64,000 bases of DNA, taken from assembly GCA_023150835.1 (NCBI GenBank), contig JAKLKB010000008.1, positions 18,361 to 82,360 of the forward strand. Direction: 5' to 3'. Within the stretch, counting starts at the first letter, position 1. Each line of letters starts with the position of its first letter. This DNA comes from Myxococcota bacterium (GTDB lineage Bacteria; Myxococcota_C; UBA6777). Shown here in pieces: positions 4,400 through 64,000 of this stretch. The notes below the pieces were generated by a model, which was not told where the DNA came from, did no database searches, and was given only the letters and a program-made list of their open reading frames with translations. The position numbers were made by a program, and so were the translations under genes.

Positions 4400-6574
4400 A
4401 TGGGTTTCGCGGACAAGCTACAAGGCAAAACGCTCGGTAAATACCGCATTGATGGCCTGATCGGAGATGGCGGTCAAGCCGTCGTGTACAAGGCTTGGCA
4501 CGTCGACTTTGAGTCGTGGGTGGCGCTGAAGTTTCTTCAAGAACACGTCGCACAAAAGAGCGCGTTGCGCGAGCGCTTCAAACGCGAAGCGCGGCTTCAA
4601 TTCAAATTACAACATCCCCATATCGTCCGCGTGATCGAGATTATCGAAGAAGGTGAGCTGATGGGGATGGCGATGGATTGGGTCGAGGGGTGCGATCTGG
4701 AGCATTACCTCGAAAACAAAGGAACCCCCCTCAATGCCGACGAACTTGCGCGATTGTTTTTGCCCGTCCTTGGGGCCGTTGGATACGCCCACAAACAACA
4801 AGTGATCCACCGCGATCTCAAACCCTCGAACATCTTGCTCGGTGGCCCTGTTGGGCAAGAGATCCCCAAAGTGATGGACTTTGGGATCGCCAAAAGCCTC
4901 GAAGATGAAAGCCAACACACCAAAACCAATTCCGTCCTTGGAACGCCTCATTACATCGCCCCCGAACAAGCCACCTCCAGCAAGTACGTCGATCACCGCG
5001 TCGATATCTACGCTCTCGGTATCTCGCTGTACCAGATGCTTACAGGGCATCTCCCGTTTGAAGGGCGTGATCTTCTTCAAGTTTTGGGGGCGCACTTGAT
5101 GATCCCGCCGCCTGCTTTTGCAGAGTGGGGGGTGCATACTTCTCCCGGGCTGGAGGCTGTCGTGCAGCGCTCTCTTGCCAAAGATCCCGACCTACGCTTC
5201 CAAACCTGCGAAGAATTTGCGGTGGCCTTGATCGAACAGCTTCAGATGTATGCCATTCACCAAGGCTTGGCGACACCTCTCCCTCATTCGGCTGTTTTTG
5301 CTGCCCAAGGAGCCTTGTCGCCTGCCCCGTTGTCCTTGGCTTCTGCGCCGCTGTCTTTTTCTTCGACACCGCTGTCTTCGCCCAACGCTGCCGCGTGGAA
5401 TACTCCTGCACCCTCGACAGCCTCCCTTCCTACAGGACAATTCGCATTCATCCAAGCTGTTGCCGCTGGCGGACCAAGAACTCCTCCTTCCTCGGTCCAT
5501 CAAAACCCGACGATCTTTCCTTCTGAAGGGCGAAAGCGCTCGTCTGCTCCGTTGCTGCTTCTGTTGCTTTTGGTGTTGTTTGCAGGGAGCGGTGGGTTGT
5601 ATCTTGCGGAGCTCCTTCCTTTTCGTTCGCCTGCATCGTCTTCTTCGGGCACGGCTCCACAAACGCCTCACCCCCAACATTCGCCCCCCGCAAATCAGCT
5701 CTCTCCACATCCCGCTCTGGCCGTCAAAAACGCTGCGCTGAGTGCAACCCCCCCGCAAGATCGCAGCTTTGACCACTCCATCACCACACAAACTCCCTCG
5801 GCCCGTTCCACGCGATCCAGCGCAACGACTCCACGCAGTCGCTCGTCGTCTGCTTCGCCCGATCCATCGGCCCGTGCGCGTGCAAAGCGGTCTTCTCTTC
5901 GAAAGGTTCGACCCGCACGAAGCCGACGCGCTCCACCCCATCCGCCCCAACGGCTCTCTCTGCCCATTTCTCCTCGTACCATACCGCAGCTCCCAAACGA
6001 TGCGCCCGCAAAACGACCTGCTTTGCTTGCGCTATCGCCTACGCCCTCGCCTTCACCGCGCCCGATCTTCGCCTCTTGCCAAGACTGCATCCAACAGCAA
6101 GTCCAACCCCACATCCAACGGCATAATTTTTATGAAAAAACTTGCAACGCGGATATCCTTCAACTGAGTGCCAAACAGTGCGCCTCGGTTTGTCAGAAAG
6201 ATCCTGCGCAGTTTTGTTTCCAATATGGCCGCCACAACGCCAACTTACATTTCCGCTACAATCCGCCTGCTTCGCTCTTTGTGGTGTGGCCTTGGTGGAA
6301 CCAGAACCGATGGAAGATCCAAGCCTGCCGAAAGATCTTACGTTTTGAATACGTTCATTTCTTTCCAATCCCCCTCTATCAGACCCGTGACTGGAAATCC
6401 TGCATCCGTCATTTCGATCAAGGAACCAAATCTGCGTTCCAAGCATGGCGCCAAACCAAGCTACCCAAATTCCCCCGATCCCCTCAAGATATCTCTCGTG
6501 GTTGGGATGATTTCCGCCGACGAGTCCAACGCCACAAACAACGAATCGAAGACGCTTTGCCCTTCAAAGATTAA
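4400..6574 (+). CDS. Ser/Thr protein kinase, tandem paralogue of the upstream kinase
   Basis: LGKYRIDGLIGDGGQAVVYKAW, HRDLKPSN, DFGIAKSLEDESQHT; TM SSAPLLLLLLLVLFAGSGGLYL; C-terminal CQDC...C...C...C domain as in 2171..4204. Confidence 0.92.
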   Translation: MGFADKLQGKTLGKYRIDGLIGDGGQAVVYKAWHVDFESWVALKFLQEHVAQKSALRERFKREARLQFKLQHPHIVRVIEIIEEGELMGMAMDWVEGCDLEHYLENKGTPLNADELARLFLPVLGAVGYAHKQQVIHRDLKPSNILLGGPVGQEIPKVMDFGIAKSLEDESQHTKTNSVLGTPHYIAPEQATSSKYVDHRVDIYALGISLYQMLTGHLPFEGRDLLQVLGAHLMIPPPAFAEWGVHTSPGLEAVVQRSLAKDPDLRFQTCEEFAVALIEQLQMYAIHQGLATPLPHSAVFAAQGALSPAPLSLASAPLSFSSTPLSSPNAAAWNTPAPSTASLPTGQFAFIQAVAAGGPRTPPSSVHQNPTIFPSEGRKRSSAPLLLLLLLVLFAGSGGLYLAELLPFRSPASSSSGTAPQTPHPQHSPPANQLSPHPALAVKNAALSATPPQDRSFDHSITTQTPSARSTRSSATTPRSRSSSASPDPSARARAKRSSLRKVRPARSRRAPPHPPQRLSLPISPRTIPQLPNDAPAKRPALLALSPTPSPSPRPIFASCQDCIQQQVQPHIQRHNFYEKTCNADILQLSAKQCASVCQKDPAQFCFQYGRHNANLHFRYNPPASLFVVWPWWNQNRWKIQACRKILRFEYVHFFPIPLYQTRDWKSCIRHFDQGTKSAFQAWRQTKLPKFPRSPQDISRGWDDFRRRVQRHKQRIEDALPFKD

Positions 6575-6577
6575 TTC

Positions 6578-7267
6578 TTAGCGAAGAGATCTTCCGCTGC
6601 GTGACCAACGGATATCCCAATATGTCGCAGGATCACGCGACCACAAGACGCGAACAGCGCGTGCGCGGAGGTTTTGGAGCGGGACCGAACCAAAAACACG
6701 GCTATCTGCGCTGTGATCGCGGTTATCACCCATCGCGAAAAAATGACCTTGGGGGATCGTTCGGGTTGGCATATCCCGAAGAAAAGGCTGGCTTGGGTCA
6801 AACTGCACGACATAACGGTGCTTTCCATTGGACTCAATGCGTTGGAGCCAACCGTCTTTTTGGAGCGCGGCGCTTTGTGGCAAAGGGGCACCGTTGCGCA
6901 AGATTACACCGTCTCGGATCGCCAAACGATCGCCTCCAACGGCGATCACTCGCTTGAGCAAGAGTGTTTGTGGATCGCGTGGGTCCACAAACACAACGAT
7001 ATCCCCGTACGAAGGCGCAGATTGCGAAGAGAGTAGCCGATCGGTAAAAGGAATCCGCAGGCCGTAGCTGTGTTGATAAGCCATCAAACGGTCGCCCGTG
7101 TAGACGCTCGGCTCCATCGAACCCGAAGGGACGTAGTAGGTCGCGGCGATCGAAGAACGCATCGCCAACGCCACCAGCAAAAAAACACCCAAGCTCAAGG
7201 CTTCTTTTAAAAAAGCTCGACATGACGAGAGGACGGGGGTATTGGATGGGTTCGTTTGGGTCGTCAT
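6578..7267 (-). CDS. lepB: Signal peptidase I
   Basis: YYVPSGSMEPSVYTGDRLMA (SxMxP), DPQTLLLKRVIAVGGD, GHFFAMGDNRDHSADSRVFG motifs of the S26 family. Start ATG at 7267. Confidence 0.93.
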   Translation of the reverse strand: MTTQTNPSNTPVLSSCRAFLKEALSLGVFLLVALAMRSSIAATYYVPSGSMEPSVYTGDRLMAYQHSYGLRIPFTDRLLSSQSAPSYGDIVVFVDPRDPQTLLLKRVIAVGGDRLAIRDGVILRNGAPLPQSAALQKDGWLQRIESNGKHRYVVQFDPSQPFLRDMPTRTIPQGHFFAMGDNRDHSADSRVFGSVPLQNLRARAVRVLWSRDPATYWDIRWSRSGRSLR

Positions 7268-7321
7268 TTTTTTTGCTCCATCGTTTCGGGTAATACGCAG
7301 TTTTTCGGCCAACTACGCCAC

Positions 7322-7440
7322 TCATACGATATCCGGGTGATGTGTACACAAAGCATCATTCGTAGACGCCCTATAATCGGGCAGACACAGGGGTCTGCTC
7401 CTACATTTTTACGATCACACAACGAGCGGATTTCGTATCA
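7322..7440 (+). repeat. Family A MITE-like element, complete
   Basis: TCATACGATATCCG...GGGCAGACACAGGGGTCTGCTC...GCGGATTTCGTATCA. Confidence 0.85.
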
Positions 7441-7558
7441 TCCCCAAACAAACGGTGCGCTTTTTGGGTTTATTCCTGTCGTGCTGAATAACAGCGAAGA
7501 GCGTGCGTCCAAACCGCCCGAAGCTCGCGAGCCTTCTCACAAAAAAAGGAGTTTTCTG

Positions 7559-8326
7559 ATGTTGTTACGAAATGGTTTTGCAAAGGCCGCTTTCTGGGTG
7601 GCGGTGGCTGTGGGGATCTTTGCTTGGGCGCAAGACGCTCAAGCCGATGTTCGTGATATCACGATGCAAGTTCATCTGCGCTATCTCAACGGTGCCTCGA
7701 AAAACTTTGCGTGGCGTCTGCGTTATTACCCCGCAACGGGCTTGTGCATCGGTCGAGTGGAAGACCGCGATGGTGTCGCCAACTTTGATGGCTCGTATAA
7801 TCCCGTCACACGGCGATTTCGCCTCGTCAAGCATTATCCGTATCGCACCACAGGCCGCAAGCGTTATTACTACACAGGCACGCGCATTGGAAAACGCCGT
7901 GTATCGGGCGTTGCGCGGTTTGATTCTCATCTGGGTCGACCTTATGCACGTTGGACGGCTACAGTATTGTTTTCGCGCTCGGTGTATCGCCCTGTATTCC
8001 GCAATATTCGACTGCGCGGCTTTTTGAGTTATCTCAACGCAAGCGAACCCAACAAAGCCTTCAAGTGGTCGCTGCGCTACGACAGCGGCTCGGGCATCTG
8101 TAACGGTACGGTGCGCGATCGCGACGGCTTCGCGACCTTCAATGGTACATACGACCACGCTTCCCAACGCTTTTATCTGGTGAAGCACTTCGTCGGTCGT
8201 GCCACGCAGCCAAACAAGTTCTACTACAAAGGGCGCATCATCAATGGCCGCTTTGTTGGAACAGCGCACTTCGATTCCTTCTATGGGAGGATGTACGCGA
8301 GGTGGAGCGCCAACAAACGCTGGTGA
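7559..8326 (+). CDS. Secreted protein with internal duplication, unknown function
   Basis: N-terminal signal peptide (FAKAAFWVAVAVGIFAWAQDAQA). Two homologous halves (LRYLNGASKNFAWRLRYYPATGLCIGRVEDRDG... / LSYLNASEPNKAFKWSLRYDSGSGICNGTVRDRDG...). Confidence 0.8.
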   Translation: MLLRNGFAKAAFWVAVAVGIFAWAQDAQADVRDITMQVHLRYLNGASKNFAWRLRYYPATGLCIGRVEDRDGVANFDGSYNPVTRRFRLVKHYPYRTTGRKRYYYTGTRIGKRRVSGVARFDSHLGRPYARWTATVLFSRSVYRPVFRNIRLRGFLSYLNASEPNKAFKWSLRYDSGSGICNGTVRDRDGFATFNGTYDHASQRFYLVKHFVGRATQPNKFYYKGRIINGRFVGTAHFDSFYGRMYARWSANKRW

Positions 8327-8336
8327 GCGTAGAGCA

Positions 8337-10160
8337 TCAAGCGTCGGTGTTGGCCTTGGCTTCGAGTTCTTGCCAACGGGCATAGAGCTGATCGACTTGT
8401 TGTTGGGCGGTTTGCATCTCGGTGTAGCTTTGTTGAAGGGCGCGGGGATCGCGGGCGGTGATGGGGTCTTGGAGGCGGGCTTGACAGGCGGCGAGGTGTT
8501 CTTCGGCGGCAAAGATTTTTTCTTCGATCTGGGCGAATTCTTTCTGCTCCATGTACGTGAGGGTGTTTTTGCGTTTTTTGGCGGGTGGTGAGGCGATGGG
8601 AGCGGGGGAGGCGGGGAGTTGTTTGACGTTGCGTTTTTGTTCTTTGCGATGGCTTTCCCATTGAGAGAATCCTGCAAAAAAGCCGTTGCTTCCGTCTTCT
8701 TCGAGGCTTAACACGATGTCGGTCACGTTGTCGAGGATGTAGCGGTCATGGGTGATCAAGACGAGTGCTCCTTGAAAATCGAGGAGGCTTTCTTCGAGGA
8801 GTTCAAGGGTCGGGATATCGAGGTCGTTGGTGGGTTCGTCCATCAGGAGGATATCGGCGGGTTGGAGCATAAGGCGTGCGAGTTGGATGCGGGCTTGCTC
8901 GCCCCCCGAAAGCAGGCCGACTTTGAGGCCAAGTTGTTCATCACGAAACAGAAAACGGCGGGCCCAGCTTACGATGTGCATCGGCTTGCCTTGGTAGATC
9001 ACGCGATCGTTGTCGGCAGCGAGGGCTTCTTGGAGGGTTTGGTTGAGATCGAGTGAAGCGCGATCTTGTTCAAATCGCAAGATCTTGAGTTGATCAGCGC
9101 GCTGAATCGTCCCTGTATCGGGGGACATCTCATCTGCGAGGATCTTGATCAGCGTGGTTTTCCCCGAGCCATTGGTGCCGATCAAGCCGAGGCGCATCCC
9201 GGGGCGGAGTTTCAGGCTGAGATTTGAAAAAAGTGTCCGCCCGCCGAGAGATTTGCTGATGCCTTGGGCGACGAGGAGTTCTTTGGTTTTTCGGCCTGTG
9301 TCGTCAAGGGCGATCTGTGCGCTGCGCTGGCTGGCACTTTGGCGATCGCGAAGGCCGGACAGTTCTTGGATCAGGCGTTCTGCTTCTTGGATGCGGGCTT
9401 TGGCTTTGGTGGTACGGGCTTTGGGGCCGCGTTGGAGCCATTCGGTTTCACGGCGAACTTTGCTTTGCAGCGATTGTTCTTGGCTTGCGAGGGCTTGGAG
9501 ATATTCGTCGCGCAAGGTAAGAAAGCGCGAGTAGTTTCCGCTGCTTCGGAAGATCCCGCCTTCGTAAACGGCGTTTAGTTCCATCACGACGGTGGTTGCG
9601 CGTTCCAAGAAAAAGCGGTCATGGGTGACGACCAAGAAGGCGAATCCGCCTTGGCGCAAGAGGTCTTCAAGCCACAAGATGCCCTCGACGTCGAGGTGGT
9701 TGGTGGGTTCGTCAAGCAACAATAGGTCAGGTTCGGTGGCGAGGGCGCGGGCGATATCAAGACGCTTTTTCCAACCGCCCGACAGCAGCGTTGCGGGTTG
9801 CGTGGCATCGCGAAAACCTGCCCGACTCAACGCGATCTGCACGTTGACTTGCTTTTGCAGATCATCCAACGGAGCGTCGCGTACAGCTTCGCGCAAGACA
9901 TCTTCAACGCTCATCCCTTCGGAGAATCGGGAGACTTGGGGGACGTAGCTTAGGCGCGTATCGCGGCGCAACGAGCGATTCCCTGTGTCGGGTGTGTCCA
10001 CTCCCGCGAGGATCTTGAGTAAGGTCGATTTGCCTGCGCCGTTCGGCCCGATCAGTCCGATGCGATCTCCTTCAAATATCCCCATCGACAAGCCTTGGAA
10101 TAAAAAACGCCCTTGCATCGACTTGCTGATATCTTGGCAGCTTAGAAGCACTTCGGCCAT
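8337..10160 (-). CDS. ABC-F family ATPase (Uup-like)
   Basis: Two ABC domains (GLIGPNGAGKST, LSGGWKKRLDIARAL; GLIGTNGSGKTT, LSGGEQARIQLARL), no TM, C-terminal coiled coil. Confidence 0.93.
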   Translation of the reverse strand: MAEVLLSCQDISKSMQGRFLFQGLSMGIFEGDRIGLIGPNGAGKSTLLKILAGVDTPDTGNRSLRRDTRLSYVPQVSRFSEGMSVEDVLREAVRDAPLDDLQKQVNVQIALSRAGFRDATQPATLLSGGWKKRLDIARALATEPDLLLLDEPTNHLDVEGILWLEDLLRQGGFAFLVVTHDRFFLERATTVVMELNAVYEGGIFRSSGNYSRFLTLRDEYLQALASQEQSLQSKVRRETEWLQRGPKARTTKAKARIQEAERLIQELSGLRDRQSASQRSAQIALDDTGRKTKELLVAQGISKSLGGRTLFSNLSLKLRPGMRLGLIGTNGSGKTTLIKILADEMSPDTGTIQRADQLKILRFEQDRASLDLNQTLQEALAADNDRVIYQGKPMHIVSWARRFLFRDEQLGLKVGLLSGGEQARIQLARLMLQPADILLMDEPTNDLDIPTLELLEESLLDFQGALVLITHDRYILDNVTDIVLSLEEDGSNGFFAGFSQWESHRKEQKRNVKQLPASPAPIASPPAKKRKNTLTYMEQKEFAQIEEKIFAAEEHLAACQARLQDPITARDPRALQQSYTEMQTAQQQVDQLYARWQELEAKANTDA

Positions 10161-10334
10161 CGCGGATCATCCTCATGTTTGCGTGCGTTCGATCATTCTC
10201 CCCAAGCGCTCTTGGGGCTGTGCGCGATCCTTCTAGCGCGTCGTGGGGTTCTTGGCAAACCCTCGACCCTCTGGACTCGGTACATCCGCGCTCTTCTCCC
10301 TGACAGAGAAAGGCCGCTTGATATCTCTCAGCAA

Positions 10335-10475
10335 AGCAGCAACTTGTGGGATGGTTTTTGGGGCGTTGCCCCACGCCCCACAAGGGACCGATGGCCCCTT
10401 GACCCCATATCGGCGGGACGAATAGAGGTTTTTCAAACCCACAACGGCTCCGCTTGACAAGACGCAAATACGGCT
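10335..10475 (+). repeat. Family C palindromic element
   Basis: GGGGCGTTGCCCCACGCCCCACAAGGGACCGATGGCCCCTTGACCCC...TTTTTCAAACC..CGGCTCCGCTTGA...CGGCTTTTTTTT as in other copies. Confidence 0.75.
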
Positions 10476-52985: not shown

Positions 52986-54161
52986 TTGCGAAAAGAGTTT
53001 TCTCGCTCTGAAGAAGAAAGTATCGAAAACGCATTACGCGACCTCAAAATTGCTCGATTCCGTGTTGTGCTGCGTTTGGAGTCTCCGCTCCAACTTGAAG
53101 CGCTTCCGATCCATGCTTTGCGTGGCGGATTGGGCTTTCATTTGCGCCAACTTCATTGCCATCCCGAAGCGCAGAAGACTTGTTCTTATTGTCGCGCCGA
53201 ACGCGGTGAATCCGTGCCCAACGACGCCCCAAGCCTCCCTTCATTGAAACGCTTTTCTGGCGAAACTTCTGTCGAGCCTTCTGCCGAGCCTTCTGCCGCT
53301 CTTGCCGTGTCCCATCCTCTTTCGAGCGATTGTCCTTATGTCCAACTGTTCCATCCCGTCGACGAAAAAATGCAGCCGATCTCTGCACCTTTTCTGATCT
53401 CTGCGCCGCTTGCTCCGCTCGCCTTGAGACGCGATCAACTCGCCTTTGATCTCACTTTGATCGGTGAGGCGCGTTATGCTCTGTCTGCTTATGTGGCTGC
53501 CTTTTCGAGGATGGGTGACACCTTGCGGCTTCCTGCCCCCCGCCCGAGGCACCGTGAGGATCGCGAACCTTCGGGGCTTGGGACTCTTCAAACACCTTTT
53601 CGTGTGGAGTCCATCCAACAAGTCGACGCCCAAGGACTCTGTGCGGCTTCATGCGTCGAAGACGGTCGGTTTTGCTCTGACCAACCGCTGGAATTGTCGC
53701 TGGCTTCTTGGGCGGATCAGACGGCTCTTTCGTTTCGCCGTTTGGTGATCGAAACCGTCTCTCCTCTCCAACTCGAAGCGCCGCATATCCGTTATGCACG
53801 AGGGAATACGCACAAGTCTGATCGTGTTTTCCTACAATATCTTACCATCGATGATTTGTTTCAGCAGATCTGCCGCCGCTTGTCCAACCTTCTGCGCTTG
53901 CCTTTTTGGTCGGGTGAGCCGATGTGGGTCCTTGTCGATCTCCCTCCACGCTTGGATTTCATTGAAGCCCAATACCAATGGGTCGAGGAAAAGAAAAAAC
54001 ATCGCGAAAATAAATCATTTAATCTGAGCGGATTGACTGGGCGTTATGTCGTCAGTGGCCGCCCGGGCGGATTGTGGCCTTTTTTACAGATGGGGCGCTT
54101 TTTGCAAATCGGTCGCCGCACTACTTATGGCAATGGGCAGTTTCAAATCCACGCTTCTTGA
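52986..54161 (+). CDS. cas6: CRISPR-associated endoribonuclease Cas6 family
   Basis: Long RAMP-like protein with internal C..C (CSYCRAERG) and CPYVQLFHP region; C-terminal GLTGRYVVSGRPGGLWPFLQMGRFLQIGRRTTYGNGQFQI glycine-rich motif typical of Cas6; adjacent to cmr genes. Confidence 0.85.
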   Translation: MRKEFSRSEEESIENALRDLKIARFRVVLRLESPLQLEALPIHALRGGLGFHLRQLHCHPEAQKTCSYCRAERGESVPNDAPSLPSLKRFSGETSVEPSAEPSAALAVSHPLSSDCPYVQLFHPVDEKMQPISAPFLISAPLAPLALRRDQLAFDLTLIGEARYALSAYVAAFSRMGDTLRLPAPRPRHREDREPSGLGTLQTPFRVESIQQVDAQGLCAASCVEDGRFCSDQPLELSLASWADQTALSFRRLVIETVSPLQLEAPHIRYARGNTHKSDRVFLQYLTIDDLFQQICRRLSNLLRLPFWSGEPMWVLVDLPPRLDFIEAQYQWVEEKKKHRENKSFNLSGLTGRYVVSGRPGGLWPFLQMGRFLQIGRRTTYGNGQFQIHAS

Positions 54162-54194
54162 GCAAACTTCCCCCAAACGAAGAGCTTTTAAGAA

Positions 54195-55193
54195 TTATTT
54201 ACCCACCAATTCAACTTTTTGCAAAACGAGCAAGGTCTTGCCATCTTCGCTGTTGCGCTCGCGCCATTGCACCAACACCGCTTGTCCTTGCTTTGGCTCG
54301 CTTTTTAAAAAGTCTTCTGAAAACAGCTTGTTGCGATCTTTCTTTTTCCAATCAAACGAAAAATTGCCTGCGTCTGTTTCGATCTGGATGGTTGAAATGC
54401 CGTCATTTTTCGCTTCAAACTGCGTGACGATCCCTTCTTGTTTATTTTCCTTTGGAGGTGGCGTGAAGTTTAACGAAAGGTGTCCATACCCTGCAGCCGT
54501 TTTTCCTCCAATTCCGTATTCCATGAGCGCAATTTTCAAGATATCCATCACCAAACGGACCCACGCCTCTTCTCCTTTTAAGGCGATCAAATACTCTCCT
54601 GTTGCTGACAAAAACGGCACAGGATTTGGGCTGTCCCAATCTGCGGGGGGCTTCTTCCCACTCCCGTAATAATCGGCGTGATGAACTGTCATCACATCGG
54701 GCCACAACGCCTTTCCTTTCCACCCCGAATTCGGCTTGTATAACGCATCGAAAAAAGTGATGTTTCCCGCTTCTTCGGTCTCCCCAAACAGATAACGAAA
54801 GGCAGCGCTCTCTCGCCTGATATCCGCCAGCTCATTCGCTGCAAAGTGAGAAACCAACCCTTTTAATGCCGAACCCGGAATATACGGAACTCCGTAGGTT
54901 TTATGCAGCGTCATCCCTGTTTCGATCAACGATTCGGAACCCAAACCTACAACCATCCGCCCTTGTACAGACGCCAATGCTGTGATCGCACCGTATTCGT
55001 TTAAGCCCTTTTCCCATGACTCAAAGAAATGCTTATAAAAAGCAGGCTCTTTGATGGCGTGCGTGTTCGACACGTGTTGGCGGCGTGCTTCTGTGTCGTC
55101 TTTGTTCTGCGTTTCAATGTAGCACTCAAACCATAGCCCTGCATGACTACACTGCGCTGCTTTGTAAGACAAAAGTGCTTCTCTTCGTGACAT
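54195..55193 (-). CDS. cmr6: Type III-B RAMP protein Cmr6 with C-terminal extension
   Basis: YGVPYIPGSALKGLVSHFA, ITFFDALY, GIGGKTAAGYGHLS typical of Cmr6; ~85-aa extra beta-rich tail QEGIVTQFEAKNDGISTIQIETDAGNFSFDWKKK... Confidence 0.92.
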   Translation of the reverse strand: MSRREALLSYKAAQCSHAGLWFECYIETQNKDDTEARRQHVSNTHAIKEPAFYKHFFESWEKGLNEYGAITALASVQGRMVVGLGSESLIETGMTLHKTYGVPYIPGSALKGLVSHFAANELADIRRESAAFRYLFGETEEAGNITFFDALYKPNSGWKGKALWPDVMTVHHADYYGSGKKPPADWDSPNPVPFLSATGEYLIALKGEEAWVRLVMDILKIALMEYGIGGKTAAGYGHLSLNFTPPPKENKQEGIVTQFEAKNDGISTIQIETDAGNFSFDWKKKDRNKLFSEDFLKSEPKQGQAVLVQWRERNSEDGKTLLVLQKVELVGK

Positions 55194-55208
55194 CCTCCAG
55201 CCTCCGTC

Positions 55209-55589
55209 TTAGTCGTTGTCTTCGCTTGCGTCCACCTTGAGCAAAGACTGTGTGAATCGCTTGTGCCAAAGCAACACAGCGAGTGTTTCTTGAGTCAGGC
55301 GGATATAGTTCTGTAATGAAGCCGACCGAACTTCTTTCAACAGGGCTTCTTTGCTGTTTTGTTTCAGCAGCTTCGCGTCATGGAGTTGTTTTGCCAGATG
55401 ATCCAGAAGCAATTTTTGATCTTCGTTACCGCGTGATTCTACAAAGTGCAATGCTTGTGTAAGACCAGCGCTCTTGACCAGTACAGGAAGTTTATGCGCC
55501 ATCGTTCCGTATTTTTTCGCTTCGCTTTTTCCGGCCAACGGCTCCATCAGTTCGAAGGCTTTCGCTGCGCGTTTTTGCTCGCGTGTCAC
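55209..55589 (-). CDS. cmr5: Cmr5
   Basis: Small helical protein (V/M)TREQKRAAKAFELMEPLAGKSEAKKYGTMAHKLPVLVKSAGLTQALHFVES between cmr4 and cmr6; GTG start at 55589 overlaps the cmr4 end. ORF track start is 55619. Confidence 0.9.
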   Translation of the reverse strand: MTREQKRAAKAFELMEPLAGKSEAKKYGTMAHKLPVLVKSAGLTQALHFVESRGNEDQKLLLDHLAKQLHDAKLLKQNSKEALLKEVRSASLQNYIRLTQETLAVLLWHKRFTQSLLKVDASEDND

Positions 55590-56458
55590 GATGCACCTCC
55601 CACCAATCTCATGCTGCACAAGCCACGTCCGACAGTCGCTTTTCCGCCGAATTGCAACGTACCGCTGCTCAGTTTTTGAAGCTCACCAAAGGCTTCTTTG
55701 GCCTCCACCCATTCTCCGCCCACTTTGATCGATTGAAAAAGCGCCAGTCCGTACAAGATGCTTTCTGCGGGTAGATTTTCTTCATACCACAAGCCACCTT
55801 TTTCCACGCTTTTTGTCTCTTCTTTGATCTTAATGCGTGCGTTGATCTCTGTTCCTGTTTCAAGAAAATAGCTCAACATATCATCCGAGATCAGGCAAAG
55901 TCGTTCAACGAAAAGCTCTTGCCATGTCGGATCTGCAAAAAGCTGTTGGCTCAACCAAACCGCCCATGATTGTAGCTCGTTGCTGGCGACCGCATCCAGA
56001 TCAAGGTCTTCAAAGATCACTTTGTTGTTGTTTGTGCAGATCTTTGTTTTCGAGGTGACAAAGGCTTGCTCTTCTTTCGGAGCGGGGATCTTTTCGGGGA
56101 GTCCCTTGAGACCGATATCACGAAGATCCCGCGCAAAGCGCTTCAACACAAACGGGGAGGTCACCCACGCAAAGGTTCCCACAAAGCTGCGCAGCGGCAA
56201 GCACAGCAAAGACAGATCGGAAAACTGCAACGATCCCGCATGATCCGCTGCGTTGTCTGTCTCAGGACCAAACAGCTTTTTGCGCATCGCTTTGTCCACA
56301 CAAGCCGTACGCAATACTCCTTTGCACGAAGAGCCCGGCAAATAGGGAATCCCTGTCACCTTTTCCCGCGCAATCGGCAAGTCGATCACGCCGATACCTT
56401 GCCCTGTTCCCGCATGAAGCGGAGAAAGGGCATGCAACAGAACCAACTTCGCTTGCAT
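55586..56458 (-). CDS. cmr4: Cmr4 (type III-B backbone RAMP, Cas7 family)
   Basis: MQAKLVLLHALSPLHAGTGQGIGVIDLPIAREKVTGIPYLPGSSCKGVLRTAC typical of Cmr4; conserved D in GIGVIDLPIARE. RBS AGGAG upstream of ATG 56458. Confidence 0.95.
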   Translation of the reverse strand: MQAKLVLLHALSPLHAGTGQGIGVIDLPIAREKVTGIPYLPGSSCKGVLRTACVDKAMRKKLFGPETDNAADHAGSLQFSDLSLLCLPLRSFVGTFAWVTSPFVLKRFARDLRDIGLKGLPEKIPAPKEEQAFVTSKTKICTNNNKVIFEDLDLDAVASNELQSWAVWLSQQLFADPTWQELFVERLCLISDDMLSYFLETGTEINARIKIKEETKSVEKGGLWYEENLPAESILYGLALFQSIKVGGEWVEAKEAFGELQKLSSGTLQFGGKATVGRGLCSMRLVGGAS

Positions 56459-56503
56459 GATCATACTCCTTCTCTTGAAAATGATGATTTGTTTATTTGA
56501 ATG

Positions 56504-56675
56504 ATAAGACTTACGCGGTTGGCCTTGTTCGGTGGGGCGAGGTACCACGCCCCGCAAGGGACCTGTGGCCCCTTGACCCCGTTTGGGCGGAACAACCCTA
56601 CGTTTTTCAAACCAACCTCGGCTCCGCTTGATATACCGCGAACACGGCTTTTTTTGATCGCTGCGTCATTCCTAC
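56504..56675 (+). repeat. Family C element inserted between cmr1 and cmr4
   Basis: ATAAGACTTACGCGGTTGG...CCACGCCCCGCAAGGGACCTGTGGCCCCTTGACCCC...CGCGAACACGGCTTTTTTTGATCGCTGCGTCATTCCTA. Confidence 0.9.
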
Positions 56676-57928
56676 AGCGAGTTCAAAAAGGCTTGCAGAG
56701 GATCGGTCTCTCCATTGAGCGGTACGATGGCACTGGCCTCTTGGGGGGTGACATGGGCCGATTGCTTGCCTTTCGAACCGCTTTTGTTCAGGAGCAGATC
56801 GTTCGCAAACGGAAACGGGGCGCGAAGCACCAACGCCACGCCCACCACGTTGCTCCCCGTGTGGAAGGGGCGCAGGATCAGCGGCGAAGCCATCCGATCC
56901 CAATCAAACGGGCGCAGCTCGACATCGCCCGGCTCTCCGCGTCTGTCTGTCTCTCTTCTTTGTTGGAAATGGAAGATAATCGGTAGGCCGAAAAAAGCTC
57001 GTGGAAATCTTCGGATCACTTTCCCGCTGACATGGACGACAGGTGTTCGATGTGCTGGGGCGCTTTGGCGTGTGATCGCTCGAATGGCGTCAGGTTCGGG
57101 CCACTTGCTGCGCCCCGGGGTCGGAGGCGTCCCTTTGTTGCGTTGTTGGCGGAAGTTCTTGTATCGCTGCAACAGATTGGACCAGATGGCTTCCGCTTGT
57201 TTGTTTTCTCCTACGCAGCGCAATCGGGCTCCATGCAAGATCGGCATCTCGATGTTTCCACCTGTGGCCAAGGCGTAGTGCTTGAGTTCTTCTTGTAATT
57301 TCGCACAGAGTTTGTCTGCTTTTTCGGGATATTTGACTTCCTCGCCGTCGCGTTTTCGCAGATGCAACGCACCAAAGCCGCGCCGCCCACGCGCACCGAT
57401 CCAGCCGAAACAACTCCACGCCCACAACGCCGCTTCCACCTCTGCTTTCAGCGAGCTTGGATAACGCAGTGTCAGCTTGAATTGATGGCCCCACGGTGGC
57501 TCAAAGAGCGGTTCGCTTTGGGCTGGAAACGCTGCATACGAATAAGGCGACTTAAAGTGTCCGATATTTTTGACTGGGGCACCGCCGTGTTGGATACTTG
57601 AAGGAAGTGTGAAAGGTTTGCTTGCCTGTGTCTGTTCGACGGTGATCTGGACGCAAGAAGGCTGTTCGGTGGAGCCCCAGATGGCGGACTCTTTTGCGTG
57701 GAGTTCGTGTGTATTTTTGCAGGCTGCGCCGCGTGTGGCTCGCCACCAAAAGCGCAGATGCCCTCGGATAGTCGGCACGCGGATCGGCGTCACTTCGTCG
57801 GGTTTGCCTGCATCCACGCCGCCACCGTAAATAGGGGTAATCACGGTATATTCACGCGTTTCTGTGATGATCTCGTCTTGTCTCTTGACCCGATTGAGGC
57901 TTGGAAGGGCGGGAGGTTGTTTCGGCAT
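56672..57928 (-). CDS. cmr1: Cmr1 (Cas7 family RAMP)
   Basis: YTVITPIYGGGVDAGKPDEVTPIRVPTIRGHLRFWWRATRG is diagnostic of Cmr1. ATG 57928 preceded by AGGAGAGG; ORF is open up to 58042. Confidence 0.95.
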   Translation of the reverse strand: MPKQPPALPSLNRVKRQDEIITETREYTVITPIYGGGVDAGKPDEVTPIRVPTIRGHLRFWWRATRGAACKNTHELHAKESAIWGSTEQPSCVQITVEQTQASKPFTLPSSIQHGGAPVKNIGHFKSPYSYAAFPAQSEPLFEPPWGHQFKLTLRYPSSLKAEVEAALWAWSCFGWIGARGRRGFGALHLRKRDGEEVKYPEKADKLCAKLQEELKHYALATGGNIEMPILHGARLRCVGENKQAEAIWSNLLQRYKNFRQQRNKGTPPTPGRSKWPEPDAIRAITRQSAPAHRTPVVHVSGKVIRRFPRAFFGLPIIFHFQQRRETDRRGEPGDVELRPFDWDRMASPLILRPFHTGSNVVGVALVLRAPFPFANDLLLNKSGSKGKQSAHVTPQEASAIVPLNGETDPLQAFLNSL

Positions 57929-58038
57929 AGCCTCTCCTTCTGATGTGTGGCTTCTTTTTTTCTTGTCGAAGGCTTCTTTTGAATCTTCTTCGCTCAGGAA
58001 ACGCTTTCGACACCAAGAGTATCGCTCTCTTTGGGCTT

Positions 58039-59319
58039 TCAAGGGATCTGTGTGGTTCCGAACAACGCGATGCCAAAACCATCGCGGCGATCTTGTTCGA
58101 GATCAGAGATCGGCTGACACCAATGTTGATGCAGCCAACGGCGGATGGCAGAGGCTTCCCCTTCCAGTTTCAGATAAAGGACGCTTCCTGCGGTCATCAA
58201 TCGGCGCGTCGGCTTGGGCGCTCCTTGGCGTTTTGCTTGCGCCGTTTTGTACTGAAGATCCCAACCCGAGACCACTTGCGGTCTTTCGGTGCGCAGCGCA
58301 CACAAGCGAGGCGTCACGCCTTCTTTTGGCTCCAACAGCCACGTCGGAAGCGTGCCTCGCGTAAAATAAGCGGGTGTCGCAAGCAGCAATCGCGCCGCAC
58401 CTGCTTGCACGATCGCTTCTTCGAGTTCTTGGCTCATCTTGAACGCAGACTCCACGCCCTCTTGTTTGCGCCACATCCCAGCACGCCGCTCTCCGCCAAG
58501 ATAACCAAAGCCCTCTTTGAGCCGTTTCTCCCAGACCTGTGGCGCTTGTAGATGCGTCGCGATCCCCATCCGTTGGAGATCACCAAAGCGATTTTTTCCA
58601 GACGTTCTTTCTCCCGAAGCTTGCCCCTCTTTGGCACTTTCGGTCTTTGCCAAAAAGCGGATGCCTTGTACTTGAAACAGCGCGCCTTCTTCTGCGGTGC
58701 TGCTGTCCTCTTGCACAGACACGTGTGTCCGCCACTCGCTCTCTAACTGTCCGATCCCCAACGCTTTTGGGTCAATCGTTTGCGTCGTTGGCTGAAGCAA
58801 CCAGCGTTGCAGATGCGACCACTTCCAAAAGGCCGGGGCTGTACTCGCTGGCTTGCCTTTTTGCGGAGACGAAAGCATCAAAGGCACCCATCCACCGGGC
58901 AGATTGCTTTGCTCGCCTGTTCCCAGTCCCTGCGGTACAAGAGACACACAATTAACCTTGCCTGAGTCGTCTTTTGGGCCGCGCTCAAAACACACCGCAT
59001 CCAATGGACTCGGGAGATACCATTCTTCGATCTTTCCCGTTTCGCTCAAACGCACCAAAAATGGGCCTCGGCTGCTTACTTCCCGAAGCAACGCTTCGGC
59101 CATCGCGGATTCATTTGTGTAGCCGGTCCCTTCTACACAAAAACCCCCATGCGTCGGAGAACTTCCGAGATGCGTTCTGGCTGCTCCTGCGAGCGTTGAC
59201 GGATACGGAAACGATAGACTGTACGCCTTTGACCCGGGCGCACTCGCAAACGGACGACCATCACGCAGCACCACCACACTCTGCGGCTCCAAGATCCACC
59301 ACTGTTTGATCTCGCTCAT
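58039..59319 (-). CDS. cmr3: Cmr3 (Cas5 family RAMP)
   Basis: WWILEPQSVVVLRDGRPFASAPGSKAYSLSFPYPSTLAGAARTHLG typical of Cmr3; between cmr2 and cmr1. Confidence 0.93.
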   Translation of the reverse strand: MSEIKQWWILEPQSVVVLRDGRPFASAPGSKAYSLSFPYPSTLAGAARTHLGSSPTHGGFCVEGTGYTNESAMAEALLREVSSRGPFLVRLSETGKIEEWYLPSPLDAVCFERGPKDDSGKVNCVSLVPQGLGTGEQSNLPGGWVPLMLSSPQKGKPASTAPAFWKWSHLQRWLLQPTTQTIDPKALGIGQLESEWRTHVSVQEDSSTAEEGALFQVQGIRFLAKTESAKEGQASGERTSGKNRFGDLQRMGIATHLQAPQVWEKRLKEGFGYLGGERRAGMWRKQEGVESAFKMSQELEEAIVQAGAARLLLATPAYFTRGTLPTWLLEPKEGVTPRLCALRTERPQVVSGWDLQYKTAQAKRQGAPKPTRRLMTAGSVLYLKLEGEASAIRRWLHQHWCQPISDLEQDRRDGFGIALFGTTQIP

Positions 59320-59381
59320 CGCTACACCTATTTGTCTGCTTTTTGTGCGCTTTTTCTCTGTTACACATCTGTCTTAAAGTA

Positions 59382-61232
59382 CTAGAGATTTTGTGTCAAT
59401 GGCTCTGAAAGCGCGATCGCATCTTGGAGATATTTGGATAGAATCAGTTCTTGCGCAAGCTGCCCCACCGATATGCTGCTCTTCTTGCTGCTTTTTTCGC
59501 CATCCAATTGAGAAAGCAGAGTATCCGTTGTTTCTGTTTCCACAAAAGCCGAACTGCCCGTCTGACGGCGACCAAGGATGCGGCTCACCTCGTGGTGGAG
59601 CATGGCTGCGTACCTGCTGTTGTGTGCTGGGGCTGGTTCCATCGTCAAGGCCAATTCGCGCAGATGGTAGCCCGTCCCTTCTGGGATGCGGCCATTTCGG
59701 TACAGCGCGATCTGCTGATCGAGCCTGTTGTCGATACTCCCCCAATAACCCGCCACCGTCTGCTCACTTCCGCTGCGTTTGCTGATCGCGATCGCAAGTG
59801 CGTTTCGTGTCTTTTTCGCTGCTTTTTCTGCCCGACGAACCAACGCCAAACCTTCGGACAACGGCTCGACATGGTGAACGATCGCGACTCCAACAGACAA
59901 AGTCGGTGTCAATGTTTCTCCATTGTCGTCGATAAACCCAAATGAAGACATCCTGTCTCGGAAACTTTGTGCCAAAGCCCGCGCACAAGAAAGTAACTGG
60001 TGCAGCGGTACAAAGGCCAGCACATCGTCCCCTCCAGCATACACCAGATCCCCATCGTGGCGCTCTTCTACGATGGTGCGCGTGTGTTGCGCGAACCCTT
60101 CAAGCGAGCGCGATAAAGTACGGTGTTCTTGCAGACTTTTGCAGGCGTCGATGGCTTTGCCCATCCGATCCCCATCCGCAAGCAAGATCCCGTAATACGG
60201 AGCAGGACGCACTCCCCCCATCTCAAGGGCTTGATACACTCGGCGGAGGTGCTTCTTGGCTTCTTCGAGCCGATCTTCGCCGACATACTCGCTCAGTCGC
60301 TCTTCCAACAGACTTCCACCGTCCCATCGCTCCCACAAAGGATGTCCTTGGCGTGGAATATAGCCGAGTTCTGCGCCTGTTTCTTTTGCCGCCTCTTGTA
60401 GAAATCTTCGATACTCTTGAACGGCTTCGTGTACTCTTTGACTGCGACTATCTCCGCTCCGCCCAAGTTGGCGCATCCGCTCAAGCAACGGTAGGGATGC
60501 TGTATGCGAGGTGCTGAAAAAATTTTCTGCCCTTGTCCCCAAAGGGCCTCTGCCCAAACGCTTCAGCAAACCAACCCCGCACAGCCTTTCCGCTCCATTG
60601 ACACCAAATCGGCTGCGTAGTCCTCCCCGTCCTGCTTGTTCTGCTTTGCGCTCTCTTGCTTCGTCGTAAGCGCGTTCGTCGATGACCGATTCGCGCTGTC
60701 CATCCAAGCTGGACTTTGGAACATAATCTCCCCATCGCACCGCGTTGAAGTCACGCGTATTTTTTCGGCCTGCCAACAGGTCTTCTGCGCGGCTTCTCGC
60801 CCTGTTGTAATCCCCCTCCAATGGTACTGCCGCCCAGTAGCATTCCAATACATCCGCGAGCTGTTTGTCTGCGATCTCTTGATGGAACAGTTCATTGCTT
60901 CTTAATGCTGAAAACGCACTTTGGCTCAATGCCTGTAGTCTTTTTTGCATCGCTTCGTAAGCAGCTTCGGCAACTTCTCTCGGCGAATTCTTGATCTGTG
61001 CCACCACTTTGTTTGCAACGTTGCTCGCTGAATTCGCCGCGAGATCGATCGCTTCGTTTCCAAATGCTGGAAAGATCAGCGCTCCTTCCCCCTCTTGGAT
61101 GTGGATGCTTCTTGCTGCGGCTTTCGATAACTCGCTCAGAAGCCATGAGCCAAACCACAAATCCCGACATCTTCTTGCTGTGGCGATAAACTCTTGGACT
61201 GGACCGATGCTCATCACGAGAAGCGAGGCCAT
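59382..61232 (-). CDS. cmr2: Cmr2/Cas10 with intact GGDD palm motif
   Basis: SIGPVQEFIATARRCRDLWFGSWLLSELSKAAA, GILLADGDRMGKAIDA, LVYAGGDDVLAFVPL. No HD nuclease motif seen at the N-terminus. Confidence 0.97.
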   Translation of the reverse strand: MASLLVMSIGPVQEFIATARRCRDLWFGSWLLSELSKAAARSIHIQEGEGALIFPAFGNEAIDLAANSASNVANKVVAQIKNSPREVAEAAYEAMQKRLQALSQSAFSALRSNELFHQEIADKQLADVLECYWAAVPLEGDYNRARSRAEDLLAGRKNTRDFNAVRWGDYVPKSSLDGQRESVIDERAYDEARERKAEQAGRGGLRSRFGVNGAERLCGVGLLKRLGRGPLGTRAENFFSTSHTASLPLLERMRQLGRSGDSRSQRVHEAVQEYRRFLQEAAKETGAELGYIPRQGHPLWERWDGGSLLEERLSEYVGEDRLEEAKKHLRRVYQALEMGGVRPAPYYGILLADGDRMGKAIDACKSLQEHRTLSRSLEGFAQHTRTIVEERHDGDLVYAGGDDVLAFVPLHQLLSCARALAQSFRDRMSSFGFIDDNGETLTPTLSVGVAIVHHVEPLSEGLALVRRAEKAAKKTRNALAIAISKRSGSEQTVAGYWGSIDNRLDQQIALYRNGRIPEGTGYHLRELALTMEPAPAHNSRYAAMLHHEVSRILGRRQTGSSAFVETETTDTLLSQLDGEKSSKKSSISVGQLAQELILSKYLQDAIALSEPLTQNL

Positions 61233-61281
61233 GACTTCTTCTCTCCGTGTGCTTGGTGCGTGACTGGTCTTTCTCGGATCT

Positions 61282-61390
61282 TGTACGATATCCGAGGTGA
61301 TCTATGATCGAAGGATAGCGCCCAGACGCCCTATCCTTGGGCAGCTTCCCCTACATTTTTATGATCACGCAACGGGCGGATTTCGTATTA
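61282..61390 (+). repeat. Family A element between the DUF932-like gene and cmr2
   Basis: TTGTACGATATCCGAGGTGATCTATGATCGAAGGATAGCGCCCAGACGCCCTATCCTTGGGCAGCTTCCCCTACATTTTTATGATCACGCAACGGGCGGATTTCGTATTA. Confidence 0.88.
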
Positions 61391-61541
61391 CAGCTTTCTT
61401 TTGGTACCCATCGCAACGTTTTGTTTGTGTAGCACGAACTTTTTCGCCACGCAAGAACATTTTTTCGTTTTCTTCCAAAAAGCATACGGCACAGCAGCAG
61501 TCACCCGATCATGTTCTCTCTGTTTATTTGCTGTCGAAGTC

Positions 61542-62648
61542 TTACATATTGATACGATGATGTGGCAGCAACGGAGAAGCATAAAAACCATTCTCTTGAA
61601 ATTCTCCGCTCTCTTCTCGCAAGAAAGTTTCTAAAGAGCGATCCAGAATGAATGTCCCGGCCAGCTTTAGGTAATGACTTGGTCGTTTGCTCAGTGCTTT
61701 TTCGTGCGTTCCGAGCCATGTAAGACTTTGGGACAAAGACCACTCATTCGATCCTGTCTTTGCGATCTCGTCTCGCAAGTGTGCTTTGATGCGTTCCTTT
61801 GAGGCTGGCGCGAGGTTGAGGCGAAACAACAGATCGTCCACCAATTCCTTTTTGAGCGGGGTTTGGCGGCGTATCTCGACGTTTTGTTGGGTGTCTGCGA
61901 TTCGAGCAAATCCCGACTCCACAAACGCCCAGATAAACGTACTGATCGGTTGTTGGCGTGTATGTTTCCATTGAATCTCTTGCTCGCGCCCTCTCAAACC
62001 ATTTGCGCAGATCAACACGTAGCGTTCAGCTTTGGCCTGATAAGCGCTGTATCCATTGTTCAGGCCAAACAAGAAGTGGCTCTCTAATCCAACTTCCATT
62101 CGTTTCTTGGGAGAGCGAATAGAAAAGGATAGGCATGGGCGGCCAAAGTCGTCTCTGCCCCATGTTTGTTGTTCTGAGAAGATCTTCCCCAACCGCGCAT
62201 CCGATCGGATGGCCTGCTGGAGTTCTTCGTAAACCTGCCCTTGGTCGATCTTCACAAAATGCTCCGAAACCACGCCATAAATGCTCTCGCCGCTTTTCGT
62301 CGGAAGAATGCGCAAAATCGGTTGTTCTTGATACAACGCATCCCTCAATTCTTCTTCCAGTTTTTTGGCATTGCTTCGATAGGCTGCATCCCATCGCTGT
62401 TTGCACTGCGCGTAGTTCGCGTTGGCATCTGCTCCCTTTGGTAGATTCGGCCACAGCCGATTCGCCAACTGATGCAGCAGCGGGCGATCCAAGGAACCTT
62501 GGTAGGTTTGACCTTTGATGCGTACGGTTACGCCATTCTTTTTTAGAAAAAACTCCGCGTCTCGGGTGAATGGCACATCCCGAATCTTTGCTTCGTTTTT
62601 GACTGTTTCTTTGATTTGCTGCGGGAGTTGAGTCTGATCGAGCGCCAT
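61542..62648 (-). CDS. DUF932-like protein at head of the Cmr locus
   Basis: GESIYGVVSEHFVKIDQGQVYEEL, SHFLFGLNNGYSAYQAKAERYVLICANGLRG...WKHT, EWSLSQSLTWLGTHEKALS resemble phage/plasmid DUF932 proteins. RBS AGGAGGAC upstream of ATG 62648. Confidence 0.6.
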   Translation of the reverse strand: MALDQTQLPQQIKETVKNEAKIRDVPFTRDAEFFLKKNGVTVRIKGQTYQGSLDRPLLHQLANRLWPNLPKGADANANYAQCKQRWDAAYRSNAKKLEEELRDALYQEQPILRILPTKSGESIYGVVSEHFVKIDQGQVYEELQQAIRSDARLGKIFSEQQTWGRDDFGRPCLSFSIRSPKKRMEVGLESHFLFGLNNGYSAYQAKAERYVLICANGLRGREQEIQWKHTRQQPISTFIWAFVESGFARIADTQQNVEIRRQTPLKKELVDDLLFRLNLAPASKERIKAHLRDEIAKTGSNEWSLSQSLTWLGTHEKALSKRPSHYLKLAGTFILDRSLETFLREESGEFQENGFYASPLLPHHRINM

Positions 62649-63081: not shown

Positions 63082-63506
63082 TCAATAAGGCTCTTGGAAT
63101 GGGTCGATGACGTGAAGAGTCAGGCCATCAAAATCGGAAACGTTACGTGTCGCTACTGCAAAATTGTTCGCTATCGCGATGGCGGCGATCTGGCCGTCAA
63201 ATGCGCTCAATGGGCGTCCCATTTTTTTTCTAGAGCCATGATTTGGCTGTAGGTATAGGCAGCAGCCTCATCAAAAACCAAAACACGCTGATCGAATCCA
63301 TCCGTGACAAACGCAGCAAACCGTTCTTGTAGCGTGTATTTTCGATATCCATTCGGTAGGATTTCGAGTCCATAACCAATTTCGGCGAGTGTGATCGTTG
63401 TGAGATAGAGAGTTGAAAGCTCTTGACGATCCAACCAATCCAGTACACGCGTTGAAGGGGCAACCCTCATCGCTTCCGACACAACGTTGGTGTCTAAGAC
63501 GATCAT
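63082..63506 (-). pseudogene. FitB/VapC-type PIN-domain toxin, split by a -1 frameshift at A8 (possible pseudogene or slippage-expressed gene)
   Basis: Frame 1: MIVLDTNVVSEAMRVAPSTRVLDWLDRQ...DEAAAYTYSQIMALEKKWDAH*; -1 frame continues GRPLSAFDGQIAAIAIANNFAVATRNVSDFDGLTLHVIDPFQEPY*, the conserved PIN C-terminal half. Confidence 0.85.
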
Positions 63507-63736
63507 CTTGAAAGATCCAAAGGTTGCGCTTGCTCGCGTTTTGGCGTGTCAAGCTCGATCCCGTGCTCGGTTCCAAACAGTCGCAGCGCGAGTTTCCCCA
63601 AACGTTCCGTCGGAGCCAAGGCTTGTTGCAATATCTCGCGAGCTTCTTCTTCGATCGACACGCCTCGTCGCGCAGCTCGATCTTTTAGCCGATCGACCGT
63701 TGTTGGATCAAGCTTTTGGATGTATAAATCGGTCAT
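63503..63736 (-). CDS. FitA/VapB-type antitoxin
   Basis: MTDLYIQKLDPTTVDRLKDRAARRGVSIEEEAREILQQAL ribbon-helix-helix antitoxin motif; ATGA overlap with the PIN toxin. Confidence 0.88.
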   Translation of the reverse strand: MTDLYIQKLDPTTVDRLKDRAARRGVSIEEEAREILQQALAPTERLGKLALRLFGTEHGIELDTPKREQAQPLDLSR

Positions 63737-64000
63737 CGTTGTCTCTCTTCTTGCGTCACTTTCGGGTTGTTTTTTTGGCGAACAGTTCTGTTTCAATGCT
63801 AAGGGTTGAAAAAAAACCAGCGCGGAGAAGGAGAAGATCGGAGCGAAAAAGAGAGTCTCGATGCAAAAACAACAATGTTTCCAAGGGTGTCGAAAATGAC
63901 ATGGAGCCACGCAACCATCCGACTAAAAATAGAGGAGCAGCCCCATGTCGACGAACCATTCTAGCTATCTCACTTCTCTCGTCAACACTTTTTCTCACTT

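What the first reader, a model, noticed from the sequence alone, without database searches (positions are those of the whole stretch)
53000..62648. Type III-B (Cmr) locus with a DUF932-like protein as first gene and no visible CARF effector
Seen: cas6 (+) faces a minus-strand locus ordered DUF932-like, cmr2, cmr3, cmr1, cmr4, cmr5, cmr6. Cmr2 keeps GGDD. Known: Cas10 with GGDD normally makes cyclic oligoadenylates that activate CARF/SAVED effectors such as Csx1/Csm6, Can1/2 or NucC. None is recognisable in the window. DUF932 proteins are usually reported from phages and plasmids with unknown function. Inference: the 368-aa DUF932-like protein is either an uncharacterised accessory/effector of this Cmr system or an unrelated passenger.
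Basis: partly seen in the sequence, partly recalled or inferred. Interest (0 to 1): 0.75.

Follow-up and report, generated by a model that had tools for sequence, protein, structure and literature searches.

The report
Cmr CRISPR locus with unrelated neighbour
This is a normal type III-B (Cmr) CRISPR defence locus whose signal-activated effector proteins are encoded elsewhere in the same genome, and the odd first gene is most likely a stray phage/plasmid-type gene (family DUF932) that sits beside it by chance.

Summary
The gene order is as reported: cas6 (+) faces cmr6-5-4-1-3-2 (-); Cmr2 keeps GGDD and has no HD domain. The 368-aa protein (61542-62648, -) scores below Pfam's DUF932 cut-off (14.5 bits against 23), but profile-profile comparison shows a real, very divergent DUF932 protein: score 41, against at most 24 for 150 decoys and 21 for 60 shuffles. 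The proposed CRISPR link fails its own test: none of 99 related Cmr loci (78 with at least 1.5 kb upstream of cmr2) has a DUF932 gene. It is separated from cmr2 by 309 nt with two inverted repeats; gaps inside the operon are at most 114 nt. 'No CARF effector' holds only for this contig. The same genome encodes Csx1 (beside cas6, cas1/2, RT-PrimPol and an array, without Cas10), CARF-RelE, SAVED-Lon and a second Cas10 (III-D). Effector-less, HD-less, cyclase-positive Cas10 loci in genomes with several type III loci are a published pattern, explained by signalling in trans. In passing: DUF932 genes elsewhere often pair with a PD-(D/E)XK nuclease gene (7 of 17 genomes). The contig ends 1.35 kb past the gene, so the far side is unseen.

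The parts
52986..54161 (+). cas6 (crRNA-processing endoribonuclease); true start probably internal to this ORF
   Evidence: Pfam CRISPR_Cas6 3e-8, PADLOC Cas6 6e-39
54195..55193 (-). cmr6
   Evidence: TIGR01898 1e-39
55209..55619 (-). cmr5
   Evidence: PF09701 1e-28
55586..56557 (-). cmr4
   Evidence: TIGR02580 1e-73
56672..58042 (-). cmr1
   Evidence: TIGR01894 2e-18, PADLOC Cmr1 3e-30
58039..59319 (-). cmr3
   Evidence: PF09700 3e-71
59382..61232 (-). cmr2/cas10: cyclase motif GGDD at residues 400-403, no N-terminal HD domain
   Evidence: TIGR02577 2e-61; Cmr2_N match starts at residue 4; motif
61233..61541 (.). 309-nt intergenic gap with a hairpin (about 61310-61338) and a second dyad CTCGGAT..ATCCGAG nearer cmr2: likely regulatory region of the cmr operon
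61542..62648 (-). divergent DUF932-family gene, 368 aa; keeps SEHFVKID (128-135), NNGYSA..YVLICANGL (197-218) and H229; judged a passenger
63207..63910 (-). VapB/VapC-like pair next to it; the annotated vapC frame is only 99 aa, so its integrity is uncertain
   Evidence: NCBIfam VapC 2e-6, VapB-like 0.012; sequence

Best explanation
An ordinary type III-B Cmr complex. Cas6 matures crRNAs, Cmr1-6 bind target RNA, and the HD-less, GGDD-bearing Cmr2 answers with a cyclic nucleotide signal (probably cA4). That signal acts in trans on effectors encoded elsewhere in the same genome: Csx1 (CARF-HEPN), CARF-RelE (Cami1-like) and SAVED-Lon (CalpL-like). Spacers and guides plausibly come from the Cas10-less module on contig C183 (cas6, RT-PrimPol, PrimPol, cas1, cas2, array, csx1). 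The 368-aa gene is a divergent member of DUF932, a family of phages, plasmids and other mobile DNA whose genes are often next to DNA replication or recombination genes. It lies beside the operon without being part of it. Shown: gene identities, presence of the effectors, absence of DUF932 from sister loci, the intergenic gap. Inferred: the signalling in trans, the cA4 signal, the supply of guides, and the passenger status.
For: 0 DUF932-like proteins in the 80 closest named Cmr loci and 20 further regions, 99 of them with recognisable cmr2, including 35 with the same cmr2-3-1-4-5-6 order, where the upstream neighbour varies and the most frequent one is cas6. No homologue of the protein in 144 genomes at E 1e-3, in GTDB contigs, viral contigs, plasmids or phages. 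309-nt gap against at most 114 nt inside the operon, with two dyads. Own genome: two Cas10, Csx1 module, CARF-RelE and SAVED-Lon, four cas1 loci with arrays. Published precedent: 133 effector-less, HD-less, cyclase-positive loci, whose genomes are 2.57 times more likely to hold several type III loci; Csx1, Cami1 and CalpL listed as cA4-activated (PMC11229360). DUF932 genes elsewhere sit next to a PD-(D/E)XK nuclease, toprim, dnaN or SSB genes.
Against: The contig ends 1.35 kb beyond the gene, so an array or effector could lie just outside. The DUF932 gene is co-directional, and its codon usage and GC do not mark it as foreign. No terminator-like site was found on the - strand in the gap, so read-through is possible. 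It lacks the nuclease partner seen elsewhere, which would also fit an adopted new role. Linkage of the trans effectors to this Cas10 rather than to the III-D Cas10 is not shown.
Confidence: 0.7

Rival explanations
1. The 368-aa DUF932 protein is a lineage-specific accessory of this Cmr system (effector, regulator or nucleic-acid-handling helper) taken over from a mobile element.
For: Directly upstream, same strand, no obvious terminator between it and cmr2; no CARF effector found on this contig; no nuclease partner in this genome.
Against: 0 of 99 sister loci carry it; no CARF, SAVED or other known ligand-sensing domain by profile; 309-nt gap with dyads; other cA4-family effectors exist in the genome.
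Confidence: 0.12
2. The gene belongs to an integrated mobile element or defence island that continues past the contig end (with the VapBC-like pair), and may act for or against the CRISPR system as a mobile-element gene.
For: Family is typical of phages and plasmids; VapBC-like neighbours; contig breaks there.
Against: No integrase, transposase or phage gene recognised between 61.2 and 64 kb; compositional signal absent.
Confidence: 0.15
3. The DUF932 resemblance is a chance match and the protein is an unrelated orphan.
For: Pfam score below cut-off; no hit in the general homology searches.
Against: hhalign score 41.1 collinear over residues 39-311, against maxima of 23.9 (150 decoys) and 20.9 (60 shuffles); phmmer E 1e-5 to a DUF932 protein in a small set; conserved motifs kept.
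Confidence: 0.03

Closest known systems
Type III-B (Cmr) CRISPR-Cas of the cmr2-cmr3-cmr1-cmr4-cmr5-cmr6 order (Herpetosiphon, Chloroflexus, Meiothermus, Thermus, Polyangiaceae)
   Same: All six cmr genes, the same order, GGDD Cmr2 about 38-47% identical
   Different: cas6 convergent and downstream; a DUF932 gene upstream, seen in none of the others
Effector-less, cyclase-positive type III loci with proposed inter-locus signalling (PMC11229360)
   Same: HD-less GGDD Cas10, no effector seen locally, another type III locus and cA4-family effectors in the genome
   Different: Here the assembly is fragmented, so distance between the loci is unknown and the right flank is missing
DUF932 (PF06067) / TIGR03299 phage-plasmid proteins
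   Same: Conserved core motifs and collinear profile match over about 270 residues
   Different: Very divergent (12-20% identity), chromosomal-looking contig beside cmr2, no PD-(D/E)XK partner

Membership tests
Type III-B (Cmr) CRISPR-Cas | Cmr2/Cas10 with Cmr1, 3, 4, 5, 6 | tested here: met
Type III-B (Cmr) CRISPR-Cas | Cyclase motif GGDD intact | tested here: met
   residues 400-403
Type III-B (Cmr) CRISPR-Cas | CRISPR array and adaptation genes in the locus (usual, not strictly required) | tested here: not met
   no cas1 on this contig and no array in 50-64 kb; four arrays elsewhere
Effector-less type III locus with signalling in trans | No known effector in the locus, HD-less cyclase-positive Cas10, effectors or other type III loci elsewhere in the genome | tested here: met
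   right flank unseen
Effector-less type III locus with signalling in trans | Signal from this Cas10 activates the distant effectors | not testable with these tools
   needs biochemistry or genetics
DUF932 (PF06067) | Pfam gathering score of 23 bits | tested here: not met
   14.5 bits
DUF932 (PF06067) | Homology by profile-profile comparison and conserved core motifs | tested here: met
DUF932 (PF06067) | Shared fold | tested here: inconclusive
   Model of the window protein alone failed, pLDDT 35; a phage DUF932 models well, pLDDT 81
Type III ancillary effector | Sensor domain (CARF, SAVED) or known effector domain | tested here: not met
   no hit in Pfam (except weak DUF932), NCBIfam, PADLOC, PHROGs or PDB sequences
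Type III ancillary effector | Recurrent linkage to cas10 | tested here: not met
   0 of 99 loci

The most novel reading that the evidence does not exclude
The DUF932 protein is a new, lineage-specific partner of a Cmr complex: a mobile-element nucleic-acid protein recruited as an accessory or effector that acts without a CARF or SAVED sensor.
Probability: 0.08. Interest if true: 0.7.

Novelty: new member of a known kind. Interest (0 to 1): 0.22.

Why it matters
It removes a tempting but poorly supported candidate effector and gives a worked example of a split type III system: two Cas10 loci and separate modules with Csx1, CARF-RelE and SAVED-Lon in one genome. That makes the proposed inter-locus cOA signalling testable. 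The side result, that DUF932 genes repeatedly pair with a PD-(D/E)XK nuclease and that their fold has no solved relative, gives a concrete hypothesis for an orphan family.

Tried and rejected
Single-sequence AlphaFold of the 368-aa protein: unusable, pLDDT 35. Homologue searches of the protein in GTDB contigs, viral contigs, plasmids and phages: nothing. Foldseek of a phage DUF932 model against PDB: no match at E 1e-3, so no mechanism from the fold. Contig-end sequence against the rest of the assembly: no joining contig. Foreign composition of the gene: not supported. Literature on DUF932 or TIGR03299 with CRISPR: none relevant.

Full report
Observation. The window carries a complete type III-B module: cas6 (+, 52986-54161) facing cmr6, cmr5, cmr4, cmr1, cmr3 and cmr2 on the minus strand (54195-61232), identified by family matches. 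Cmr2 is 616 aa, starts directly with the Cmr2_N/palm region, so has no HD domain, and keeps GGDD at residues 400-403. Upstream, 61542-62648 (-) encodes 368 aa with a clear ribosome-binding site. The window ends exactly at the end of its contig, C111 (82,360 bp), 1.35 kb past the gene, and the end sequence joins no other contig.

What the 368-aa protein is. Pfam gives DUF932 only at E 0.031, 14.5 bits against a cut-off of 23; NCBIfam, PADLOC, PHROGs and PDB sequences give nothing. Against an alignment of 11 DUF932 proteins from phages, plasmids and genomes, hhalign gives a score of 41.1 (E 6e-5 for the single comparison), collinear over residues 39-311. Sixty shuffles reached at most 20.9 and 150 decoy ORFs at most 23.9. 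A DUF932 protein from another genome matches by phmmer at 1e-5 in a small set, and the core motifs are kept: S-x2-[YF]-x2-ID, N-x-G-x-A followed by YxLxCxNGL, and a later H. It is therefore a real but divergent DUF932 protein.

Is it linked to Cmr? I fetched the 80 closest Cmr2 loci from named GTDB genomes with up to 10 kb flanks and 20 further regions, one of which is the III-D locus of the same genome. Ninety-nine loci have a recognisable cmr2, 78 with at least 1.5 kb and 56 with at least 5 kb upstream (at least one locus is present twice, L036 and L110). None contains a DUF932-like protein by profile or single-sequence search. Thirty-five share the same cmr2-cmr3-cmr1 order; the gene upstream of cmr2 varies among them, and the most frequent one is cas6. 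DUF932-type proteins are in about 5% of sampled genomes (18 of 372, own included), so one chance linkage needs no special cause. Between the gene and cmr2 lie 309 nt with a strong hairpin and a second dyad, while gaps inside the operon are at most 114 nt; these look like the control region of the cmr operon itself. Codon usage and GC neither mark the gene as foreign nor tie it to cmr.

Where the effectors are. The claim of no CARF effector fits the contig but not the genome. Contig C183 carries Csx1 (CARF-HEPN), cas6, an RT-PrimPol fusion, PrimPol, cas1, a cas2-sized ORF and an array with about 40 repeats ending ATTGAAAC, with no Cas10. Contig C114 carries a CARF-RelE protein and a SAVED-Lon protease beside a Cas3. 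By the palm-domain profile there are two Cas10 proteins in the assembly: the window's Cmr2 and a III-D Cas10 on C44, also with GGDD. The other arrays go with type I modules (Csd1 on C149, TM1802 on C138, Cas3 and Cas4-Cas1 on C237). A survey of 1113 type III loci found 133 effector-less, HD-less, cyclase-positive loci; genomes of effector-less loci are 2.57 times more likely to hold several type III loci, and the authors proposed signalling between loci. They list Csx1, Cami1 (CARF-RelE) and CalpL (SAVED-Lon) as cA4-activated (PMC11229360). The window's locus fits that class. That its signal actually reaches those effectors, and that C183 supplies its guides, is inference.

What DUF932 may do in general. 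A phage DUF932 protein models well (pLDDT 81, pTM 0.75), has no solved structural relative at E 1e-3, and its named matches among viral models are mainly DUF932, TIGR03299 and DUF945 proteins. In 7 of 17 other DUF932-bearing genomes the gene is adjacent, on the same strand, to a PD-(D/E)XK nuclease gene (PF12705), of which most of these genomes hold only zero to three detectable copies. On plasmids the neighbours include toprim, dnaN and SSB genes. This suggests a part in DNA replication or recombination of mobile elements; it is an inference from gene neighbourhood only. The window's genome has no such nuclease match.

Verdict. The Cmr locus is ordinary, effectors able to serve it are elsewhere in the genome, and the DUF932 gene is most likely a passenger. 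A lineage-specific accessory role is not excluded, because the protein has no close relative anywhere I searched and the far side of the locus is not assembled.

Noticed in passing
L065, L067, L069, L071, L166, L168, L169, L171, L176: DUF932 genes sit next to a PD-(D/E)XK nuclease gene (PF12705) on the same strand in 7 of 17 genomes: a possible exonuclease/DNA-binding recombination pair for an orphan family.
   Followed up: partly
L059 (G000:C183:36000-51157): Cas10-less type III-like module: Csx1, cas6, an RT-PrimPol fusion, a second PrimPol, cas1, a cas2-sized ORF and an array running to the contig end.
   Followed up: partly
L188 (G000:C114), 5075-10338: SAVED-Lon (CalpL-like) preceded by two unassigned ORFs (192 and 570 aa) where CalpS/CalpT would be expected but without any Pfam match, next to a CARF-RelE gene.
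   Followed up: partly
L052 (G000:C44:12500-24523): Type III-D locus with GGDD Cas10; its last gene (329 aa) matches PADLOC candidate family PDC-M55C.
   Followed up: no
window 63207-63910: VapBC-like pair near the contig end; the toxin match covers only a 99-aa frame, so it may be frameshifted.
   Followed up: no
window 61310-61338: Strong hairpin AAGGATAG...CTATCCTT in the 309-nt gap before cmr2, followed by a second dyad; possible regulatory site of the cmr operon.
   Followed up: partly
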